This document shows, one piece after another, positions 37,907-53,463 of a stretch of 64,000 nucleotides of DNA. The notes under the pieces are model-generated. The model worked only from the letters and a program-made list of their open reading frames with translations. It was not told where the DNA came from and did no database searches. Numbering within the stretch: the stretch's first letter is position 1; the number at the start of each line of letters is the position of its first letter. The stretch is taken from the NCBI GenBank assembly GCA_013298985.1, contig JAAFJS010000004.1, forward strand, positions 1-64,000, written 5' to 3'. The translations under genes and the position numbers were made by a program. Origin of the DNA: Cytophagales bacterium. Lineage in GTDB: Bacteria > Bacteroidota > Bacteroidia > Cytophagales > Thermoflexibacteraceae.

Positions 37907-37995
37907 TTTGATGCCGTTGTTGTGTGTTGAACGCTTCGCTAACACCAACAACAAAGCATTACATTTTTAAGACTATCTGTTTTTTTAAAGTCTGT

Positions 37996-38305
37996 TACAT
38001 TCGTGCTTTAAATTATTATACGCCGTTAGGTGTTAAATATTGGTAGAAAAGCATTTCAAAGTATTCAACAACTCCGTTAGGCAATTCCATTGGGGAGTTG
38101 AATAACATTAAACTCCTAACGGAGTTTGGGTTGTTTGGGGAATATTTTGCTACCAATATTAAGTCCTTGACAGGACTTTAATACACAAATTAATAACTTT
38201 TTATAGCACGAATGTATAGGACTTTTATATTGGTAGCCTTTATTTTTAGTTCAGACCCAACTCCGTTAGGAGTTGAACAATGTCATGCAACTCCTAACGG
38301 AGTTT
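37996..38305. repeat. Composite palindromic element C with GTTA/TAAC-loop hairpins
   Basis: Nested arms: TACATTCGTGCT (37996-38007) with AGCACGAATGTA (38205-38216), and AATATTGGTAG (38036-38046) with CTACCAATATT (38150-38160). Inside and beside are hairpins AAACTCC-TAAC-GGAGTTT (38110-38127), AAGTCC/GGACTT (38161-38178), CAACTCC-GTTA-GGAGTTG (38258-38275) and AACTCC-TAAC-GGAGTT (38289-38304). It occupies most of the 440-bp gap between rhlE and the methyltransferase gene; no gene is seen there. Confidence 0.8.
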
Positions 38306-47129: not shown

Positions 47130-47220
47130 CAAAATTAGTTTATATTGTAATTATTGCATAAAGCATTGATTATTAGAAAATTGTGCAGTTTGCTGTCGCG
47201 ATTAACTCATAACTAAGTAG
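47130..47220 (+). repeat. Dispersed ~90-bp repeat, copy 2
   Basis: CAAAATTAGTTTATATTG, ATTGCATAAAGCATTGATTA, TGTGCAGTTTGCTG and GCGATTAACTCATAAC align along their length with 50310-50412 and, inverted, with 28933-29028. It ends with two heptads (TAACTCA, TAACTAA). It lies in the 490-bp gap between tuf and recN, which holds no gene. Confidence 0.7.
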
Positions 47221-47228
47221 TTCAACAA

Positions 47229-47425
47229 ATGTAAGCGTTCTTTGTATTATCACAGTCCCGTTAGGGACACGAGCTTTATAGAATATCGATAAAGAACAAT
47301 AAGTAAAAGTCCCTTTAGGGACGTAACTAATTCGCTTACAAATACTTGTGCCGTCCTTAAAGGGATTTATTGAAATATAATTTATCCTAATTTTCTACAA
47401 AGTTGTTGCGCCCACAGTGGAACTG
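47229..47425. repeat. Palindromic element D with GTTA/TTTA-loop hairpins
   Basis: Outer arms TGTAAGCG (47230-47237) and CGCTTACA (47333-47340) enclose GTCCC-GTTA-GGGAC (47255-47268) and GTCCC-TTTA-GGGAC (47309-47322). A decayed hairpin (CCGTCCTTAAAGGGA) follows, then the inverted 14-mer CCACAGTGGAACTG at 47412-47425. Confidence 0.8.
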
Positions 47426-53318: not shown

Positions 53319-53463
53319 ATGCCGTTAGGCATGACCGTTTTGTAGAGAAATCAGATTTTTTTCATCAAAGTTCTGTAGGAACGAAACCAAAGAGGTGCCG
53401 TTCCTATGGAACTTGGTGGATAGGGTGTCCTTTTTTTCTACAAAACTGTCGTCCCTCTGGGAC
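53319..53463. repeat. Palindromic element E with variable-stem hairpins
   Basis: Outer arms GTTTTGTAGA (53337-53346) and TCTACAAAAC (53437-53446). Hairpins: ATGCC-GTTA-GGCAT (53319-53332), GTTC-TGTAG-GAAC (53370-53382), GTTCC-TAT-GGAAC (53400-53412) and GTCCC-TCT-GGGAC (53451-53463). It fills much of the 287-bp gap between the transglutaminase-like gene and ilvD; no gene seen. Confidence 0.78.

What the first reader, a model, noticed from the sequence alone, without database searches (positions are those of the whole stretch)
37996..38305. Family of hairpins with conserved GTTA-type loops and freely changing stems
At several unrelated loci, short hairpins keep the loop GTTA, TAAC or TTTA while the stem changes with full compensation: CAACTCC..GGAGTTG and AAACTCC..GGAGTTT here, GTCCC..GGGAC at 47255 and 47309, ATGCC..GGCAT at 53319. 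At each locus several hairpins are grouped, and a longer inverted repeat encloses some of them. Stem turnover with a constant loop implies selection on structure, for example recognition of the hairpin by a protein (REP/RAYT-like) or as RNA. I know of no named family with this plan.
Basis: partly seen in the sequence, partly recalled or inferred. Interest (0 to 1): 0.72.

Follow-up and report, generated by a model that had tools for sequence, protein, structure and literature searches.

The report
REP-like hairpin family with its transposase
These hairpins belong to a family of short DNA repeats, spread between genes of many Bacteroidota, that keep a fixed loop and a fixed downstream tag while their stems change in matched pairs; they sit beside a small single-strand-DNA transposase that had been described as having no such partner repeats.

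Summary
In this genome CTCCKTTAGGAG occurs 72 times against 1 for the reversed control. TAAC is GTTA read on the other strand. I searched with only loop, inner CC/GG and tag fixed; the three outer pairs were complementary in 92-96% of 51 distinct units from 10 genomes, the next pair at chance. That is non-circular covariation.

Three IS200-like Y1 transposases of this genome are bracketed by these units, each with its own tag. Relatives across Bacteroidota (66 loci) carry the same plan with other stems and loops, in arrays of about 50 bp. By motifs the transposase is TnpA_Y1 subclass 1.2, listed by Quentin et al. 2018 as having no REP.

Best reading: a REP/REPtron-like system with a new layout (tag 3' of the hairpin, not 5'). 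The protein probably reads loop and tag and leaves the stem free; cleavage and mobility are inferred. The repeat enclosing 37996-38216 is a separate 221-bp inverted-repeat element inserted in the loop of one unit.

The parts
37996..38216 (.). 221-bp element with terminal inverted repeats TACATTCGTGC / GCACGAATGTA; carries two tagged units and the imperfect hairpins between them; inserted in the loop of another unit
   Evidence: 98.7% identical copy in contig C347 (L053 9542-9762) with unrelated flanks, diverged copies elsewhere; ends paired
38020..38046 (+). Class A unit: hairpin ACGCC-GTTA-GGTGT (one mismatch) 38020-38033, linker TAA, tag ATATTGGTAG 38037-38046
38069..38100 (+). Imperfect hairpin CAACTCC GTTAGGCAATTCCATTG GGGAGTTG with a CCGTTAGG core at 38074-38081
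38110..38127 (-). Untagged hairpin AAACTCC-GTTA-GGAGTTT (TAAC on the + strand)
38150..38178 (-). Class A unit on the - strand: stem GTCCT-GTCA-AGGAC within 38161-38178, tag ATATTGGTAG read from 38159 to 38150; inverted partner of the unit at 38020
   Evidence: the same unit with GTTA loop in copies L029, L045, L046, L056
37987..38236 (+). Host unit split by the 221-bp element: 5' arm AAAGTC at 37987-37992, 3' arm GGACT 38219-38223, linker TTT, tag ATATTGGTAG 38227-38236
38258..38275 (+). Untagged hairpin CAACTCC-GTTA-GGAGTTG
38289..38304 (-). Untagged hairpin AACTCC-GTTA-GGAGTT (TAAC on the + strand), inverted partner of the one at 38258 (17 nt 100% complementary)
47255..47281 (+). Class B unit: GTCCC-GTTA-GGGAC 47255-47268, linker ACG, tag AGCTTTATAG 47272-47281 (AGCTTTGTAG in copies L073, L089)
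47309..47322 (+). Untagged hairpin GTCCC-TTTA-GGGAC
53319..53345 (+). Class B unit: ATGCC-GTTA-GGCAT 53319-53332, linker GAC, tag CGTTTTGTAG 53336-53345
53438..53463 (-). Class B unit on the - strand: GTCCC-AGA-GGGAC 53451-53463, linker GAC, tag AGTTTTGTAG read from 53447 to 53438; inverted partner of the unit at 53319
   Evidence: (I1)
53400..53412 (-). Untagged hairpin GTTCC-ATA-GGAAC between the two tagged units

Best explanation
The hairpins are REP-like recognition units of small IS200-like Y1 (HUH) transposases with the motifs of TnpA_Y1 subclass 1.2. One unit reads, on one strand: a 5-bp stem whose 5' arm begins with a purine and ends with C, a loop of 3-4 nt (GTTA, TTTA, GTA here; AGA, AGC, GGA, ATC, ATA in relatives), the complementary arm, 3 nt, then a tag close to ATRTTTGTAG. 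Shown here: covariation, fixed spacing, strand asymmetry, flanking transposase genes, a period of about 50 bp, and position between genes. Inferred: the transposase binds the hairpin as folded single-stranded DNA, uses closing pair, loop and tag as address, cuts at or near the tag, and so multiplies and moves units at replication forks; the stem only has to pair and therefore drifts by compensated changes. Tandem arrays, inverted pairs and scattered units would be the products.
For: Non-circular covariation: in 51 distinct units of 10 genomes found by loop core and tag only, outer pairs 1-3 are complementary in 92/96/92%, pair 4 in 27%; all three in 43 of 51 against mean 4.9 and maximum 13 with shuffled partners. 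Spacing from GG to tag is 6 nt in 87 of 88. Near relatives of the transposase, 81 of 126 tags have a perfect hairpin 1-6 nt 5', 0 of 126 on the 3' side, random positions 4.2%; loops in tag orientation GTA 8:0, AGA 9:0, AGC 5:0, GGA 5:0, GTTA 5:0 against their complements; closing pair C-G in 49 of 49. Hairpin density 9.0 per kb beside the gene, 0.7-0.8 at 1.4-2 kb. Tag motif 6.66 bits against 4.8-5.0 in shuffles. Centre spacing 46-56 bp in 171 of 294 gaps, tags towards the gene on 37 of 47 sides. Three paralogous transposases in this genome each carry their own tag type. Genomes with the units have the transposase in 8 of 10, those without in 14 of 49, Fisher p = 0.004.
Against: No cleavage, binding or movement was observed. 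94 of 160 sampled hairpins with these loops have no recognisable tag. The gene beside the class A units (C5) has an in-frame stop in this draft assembly, and no intact one with that tag was found. Two genomes with the units (G002, G003) show no subclass 1.2 gene at E 1e-20. In three other genomes narrow patterns found mostly arrays close to the gene. Transposase identity correlates weakly with stem as well as with tag and loop.
Confidence: 0.75

Rival explanations
1. The hairpins act in RNA, as terminators, 3'-end stabilisers or protein-binding RNA elements, and the transposase neighbourhood is secondary.
For: Strand asymmetry of loop and tag would also fit RNA. The three window loci lie between convergent gene ends. 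Among tagged units between same-direction genes, 21 are sense and 11 antisense.
Against: Units are as common in divergent (13) as in convergent (13) gaps. Around the transposase they are inverted, so one side would be the wrong strand in any transcript. No Rfam family matches. The stems are short and no run of T follows.
Confidence: 0.1
2. They are simply left and right ends of an ordinary IS200/IS605 insertion sequence and its deleted copies.
For: The transposases score above the IS200 cut-off of NCBIfam NF033573 and below the RAYT cut-off. IS200 ends carry hairpins.
Against: Paralogues in this genome are only about 60% identical, not near-identical copies of one IS. Units bracket the gene in inverted orientation and in arrays, whereas IS200 ends are read on the same strand (PMC6006769). 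Units far outnumber the genes.
Confidence: 0.1
3. The hairpins are passengers of a miniature element with terminal inverted repeats TACATTCGTGC, moved by a DDE transposase.
For: Two tagged units lie inside the 221-bp element, which has a near-identical copy in contig C347 and diverged relatives elsewhere.
Against: Most units have no such terminal repeats near them. Units occur in many genomes next to subclass 1.2 TnpA. In the window the element itself sits in the loop of a unit.
Confidence: 0.03

Closest known systems
REP / REPtron with RAYT (TnpA_REP); GTAG-tagged REPs (PMC2817692, PMC3733652, PMC6006769)
   Same: Short palindromes between genes in many copies, in tandem and inverted groups, flanking a Y1 transposase gene in inverted orientation; a GTAG-like tetranucleotide at one end.
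   Different: The tag lies 3' of the hairpin after 3 nt and about 6 further bases (5' and at the foot in REPs); loop and tag asymmetric; stem exactly 5 bp; transposase scores as IS200, not as RAYT.
TnpA_Y1 subclass 1.2 (Quentin et al. 2018, PMC6006769)
   Same: Protein length and motifs DH[IV]H, WQ, Y--NQ--HH; Bacteroidetes; few, diverged copies per genome.
   Different: Described there as having no REP and generally no terminal IS200 structures; here nearly all are flanked by hairpin units.
Marinomonas REP_Mb and Stenotrophomonas REP_Sm (PMC8266576)
   Same: Short perfect hairpins; loop bases (TTTA in REP_Mb, GCT in REP_Sm) essential, stem sequence partly free: a precedent for fixed loop and variable stem.
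   Different: GTAG is 5'; the transposases belong to other groups; there a change of TTTA to GTTA greatly reduced cleavage, whereas both loops are common here.
IS200/IS605 ends (IS608, ISDra2)
   Same: Y1 transposase of the same fold family; ISDra2 TnpA is among the nearest solved relatives; a hairpin with a conserved site on its 3' side resembles a right end.
   Different: No same-strand left/right pair around the gene, arrays instead, diverged single genes.
IS1397 / ISKpn1 and other REP-targeting insertion sequences (PMC1525189)
   Same: The TACATTCGTGC element is inserted within palindromes, including one unit.
   Different: A short element without a gene; its transposase was not identified; the palindromes hit are unrelated to each other.

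Membership tests
TnpA_Y1 subclass 1.2 (protein) | Motifs DH[IV]H, WQ, Y---Q--HH; about 148 aa | tested here: met
   65, 63 and 62 of 66 relatives; definition from Table 1 and section 18 of PMC6006769
TnpA_Y1 subclass 1.2 (protein) | Conserved C-terminal domain of the subclass; placement in the published tree | not tested
   The published HMM and tree were not available; assignment rests on motifs and length
RAYT / TnpA_REP (protein) | NCBIfam REP-associated tyrosine transposase cut-off; Y..NP motif | tested here: not met
   34.6 and 37.1 bits against a cut-off of 80; Y..NQ instead of Y..NP
REP (repeat) | Short palindrome, many copies, between genes | tested here: met
REP (repeat) | GTAG or GTGG 0-2 nt 5' of the hairpin | tested here: not met
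   Tag is 3' of the hairpin; 0 of 126 tags have a hairpin on their 3' side
REPtron | Y1 transposase gene flanked by its repeats in inverted orientation | tested here: met
   Tags towards the gene on 37 of 47 sides, p = 1e-4
REPtron | Transposase binds and cuts its repeat | not testable with these tools
   Needs biochemistry
IS200/IS605 insertion sequence | Same-strand left and right hairpins around the gene, near-identical multi-copy element | tested here: not met
   Units inverted around the gene; three own paralogues about 60% identical
Rfam RNA family | Match at the gathering score | tested here: not met
   Only tRNAs in the window

The most novel reading that the evidence does not exclude
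A separate REP-type system of Bacteroidota: subclass 1.2 TnpA proteins, thought to have no partner repeats, each maintain a family of units of about 50 bp in which loop and 3' tag are the address and the stem is free. Units form, spread and change stem independently of classical RAYTs. It would be a third way, beside IS200 ends and 5'-GTAG REPs, in which Y1 enzymes read folded single-stranded DNA.
Probability: 0.55. Interest if true: 0.72.

Novelty: new variant of a known kind. Interest (0 to 1): 0.62.

Why it matters
A class of widespread transposase genes described as lacking partner sequences gets a clear candidate substrate, with an architecture that the usual search rule (GTAG 5' of the hairpin) would miss. 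The natural covariation predicts which bases the protein reads (loop, closing pair, tag) and which it does not (most of the stem). It is also a directly testable case of how a REP-like family can change its stem while keeping its transposase.

Tried and rejected
Rfam: only tRNAs. Covariation on hairpins chosen for pairing was rejected as circular; tag-anchored tests were used instead. Idea that units are often split by insertions in their loops: not general (1 split arm against 5 and 3 in controls); it holds only for the TACATTCGTGC element. Idea that tag and loop, but not stem, follow the transposase phylogeny: rejected, all three correlate weakly (Mantel r 0.20, 0.14, 0.21). RAYT of subclass 2.6 as partner: two candidate genes (C24, C95) exist but are flanked by unrelated palindromes. 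Literature searches found nothing on this family in the open-access library; subscription papers and preprints are not held. A report on RayT genes in Chryseobacterium (PMC11194056) says nothing of hairpins.

Full report
What is there. The window is part of a 6.06-Mb draft genome (G000, contig C318), probably Cytophagales (inferred: the closest named relative of its transposase, 86% identical, is a Cytophagales MAG). The cited hairpins are all present. Loops GTTA and TAAC are the same thing on opposite strands. The constant part is CC-KTTA-GG: 8 in the window against 2.63 expected and a shuffle maximum of 6. CTCCKTTAGGAG occurs 72 times in the genome, the reversed control once. Hairpins with at least eight different stems are almost never in ORFs. 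In 0.63 Mb of contigs not chosen by hits the GTTA loop is not enriched, so the family is clustered at some dozens of loci.

The unit. Listing all hairpins in register showed that many are followed at a fixed distance by TTGGTAG or TTTTGTAG. Class A ends in ATRTTGGTAG (41 tagged units in the sampled 1.4 Mb), class B in CGYTTTGTAG or similar (22), class C in ATATTTGTAG (2, both beside one gene); 94 hairpins have no such tag. Classes share stems (GTGCC in A and B; ATGCC and ATCCC in B and C), and A and B each hold many stems. So stem and tag vary separately inside one genome.

Covariation without circularity. I searched 59 related genomes with a pattern that fixes only CC-KTTA-GG and the tag, leaving the rest of the stem and the spacing open. 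Ten genomes matched; the reversed control matched once in each of two others. Of 88 units read, 87 have exactly 6 nt between GG and tag. In 51 distinct units the three outer stem pairs are complementary in 92, 96 and 92%, the fourth in 27%; 43 of 51 pair at all three, against 4.9 on average and 13 at most when partners are shuffled. The stem is therefore 5 bp. Fourteen stems occur among fully paired units (for example GTGCC, GTCCC, ACTCC, AATCC, ATTCC, GTTCC, AGCCC, ACACC). The outermost pair is A-T or G-C with the purine on the 5' arm in 47 of 51.

The partner. The genome holds eight Y1-transposase matches (PF01797). Three of them, on C328, C257 and C5, belong to one clade (MANT.TQ at the start) and are bracketed on both sides by these hairpins. 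Each has its own tag: C328 class B, C257 class C, C5 class A. The C5 gene has an in-frame stop in this assembly. Other Y1 genes of the genome (C112, C239, C24, C95) are flanked mainly by unrelated palindrome families.

Breadth. One scan of GTDB genomes gave 80 relatives, nearly all in Bacteroidota, a few labelled Neomarinimicrobiota, Ignavibacteria or Chlorobiota. Around the 66 closer ones, hairpin density is 9.0 per kb within 200 bp of the gene and falls to 0.7-0.8 per kb at 1.4-2 kb. An expectation-maximisation search finds ATATTTGTAG after the hairpins (6.66 bits, shuffles 4.8-5.0). Starting from tags only, 64% have a hairpin just 5', none has one 3', random positions 4.2%. With orientation set by the tag alone, loops read GTA, AGA, AGC, GGA, ATA or GTTA and almost never their complements, and the closing pair is always C-G. 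Units repeat mostly every 49-52 bp, and tags point towards the gene on both sides. Stems differ between species (GCCCC, GGTGC, GCTCC, GCCGC, CAACTCC and others). Transposase identity correlates weakly with tag, loop and stem alike.

Comparison with what is known. The proteins carry the motifs of TnpA_Y1 subclass 1.2. Quentin et al. 2018 list this subclass with REP 'no' and write that it is generally without typical terminal IS200 structures (PMC6006769). Their automatic search required GT[AG]G 0-2 nt 5' of the hairpin, which these units do not have. The arrangement matches REPtrons (Nunvar 2010, PMC2817692), but the protein scores as IS200 and not as RAYT, and the tag is on the other side of the hairpin. 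Recognition of a four-base loop with a tolerant stem has been shown for the Marinomonas REP (loop TTTA; PMC8266576), so the proposed logic has a precedent.

Mechanism. Strand-specific loop and tag mean that something reads one strand of a folded hairpin. The inverted placement around the gene and the spread over all types of intergenic gap favour single-stranded DNA over RNA, not conclusively. My reading is that the transposase binds the hairpin, uses loop, closing pair and tag as address, and cuts near the tag, so that units of about 50 nt are moved or multiplied. Cutting and movement are inferred from related enzymes; ISDra2 TnpA is among the nearest solved relatives (identification of those entries is from general knowledge).

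The enclosing inverted repeats. At 53319-53463 they are the inward tags of an inverted unit pair. At 37996-38216 they are the ends TACATTCGTGC/GCACGAATGTA of a 221-bp element with a near-identical copy in C347 and diverged copies elsewhere. All four neighbouring pairs of such ends that I found lie at the tip of a palindrome, with 6, 8, 13 and 12 bp of perfect flanking inverted repeat; a fifth pairing, across two neighbouring elements, gives 4 bp. Uninterrupted versions of three of the host palindromes occur elsewhere in the genome. In the window the host palindrome is itself a class A unit with its tag. This resembles IS1397 and ISKpn1 inserting into REPs (PMC1525189), but the transposase was not identified.

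Limits. The genome is a draft MAG. More than half of the sampled hairpins with these loops lack a recognisable tag. Dispersal is clear in this genome and some relatives, but three other genomes showed mainly arrays near the gene with the narrow patterns used. Papers outside the open-access library were not searched. Assignment to subclass 1.2 rests on motifs and length, not on the published profile.

Noticed in passing
window 37996-38216; L053 9542-9762; L045 9677-9889; L032 4479-4589: Short elements with ends TACATTCGTGC/GCACGAATGTA, with differing contents (the 111-bp one in L032 carries another hairpin family), are each inserted at the tip of a palindrome; three host palindromes also exist uninterrupted elsewhere.
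   Followed up: partly
L026 1387-1953 (C95), L028 1405-1950 (C24): Two RAYT-type genes (NCBIfam RAYT above cut-off; C24 fits the subclass 2.6 motif YIHNNP) flanked by their own palindromes: GTCAAGATTTGTAATCTTGAC and TTTAAGGCTCTGCCTTGAACC.
   Followed up: partly
L024 (C239), L025 (C112): Two further IS200-like TnpA genes flanked by other hairpin families (CACCGTTTTAACGGTG; CCTCGCTTTAGCGGGG; ACGCCTTTTAAGGCG), some followed by GTAG: each Y1 gene of this genome seems to have its own palindromes.
   Followed up: no
L022 (C5:225-677): The class A partner transposase has an in-frame TAG in this assembly; class A repeats may be orphans here.
   Followed up: no
L050 884-1201 (C265), L036 8978-9190 (C60), L029 11453-12182 (C2): Tandem arrays of class A units with 51-bp period, and a 295-bp tandem triplication containing units.
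   Followed up: no
window 47130-47214: An 85-bp AT-rich sequence repeated many times in the genome (for example L033 9557-9641, L046 3940-4022, L036 9235-9319), often next to hairpin clusters.
   Followed up: no
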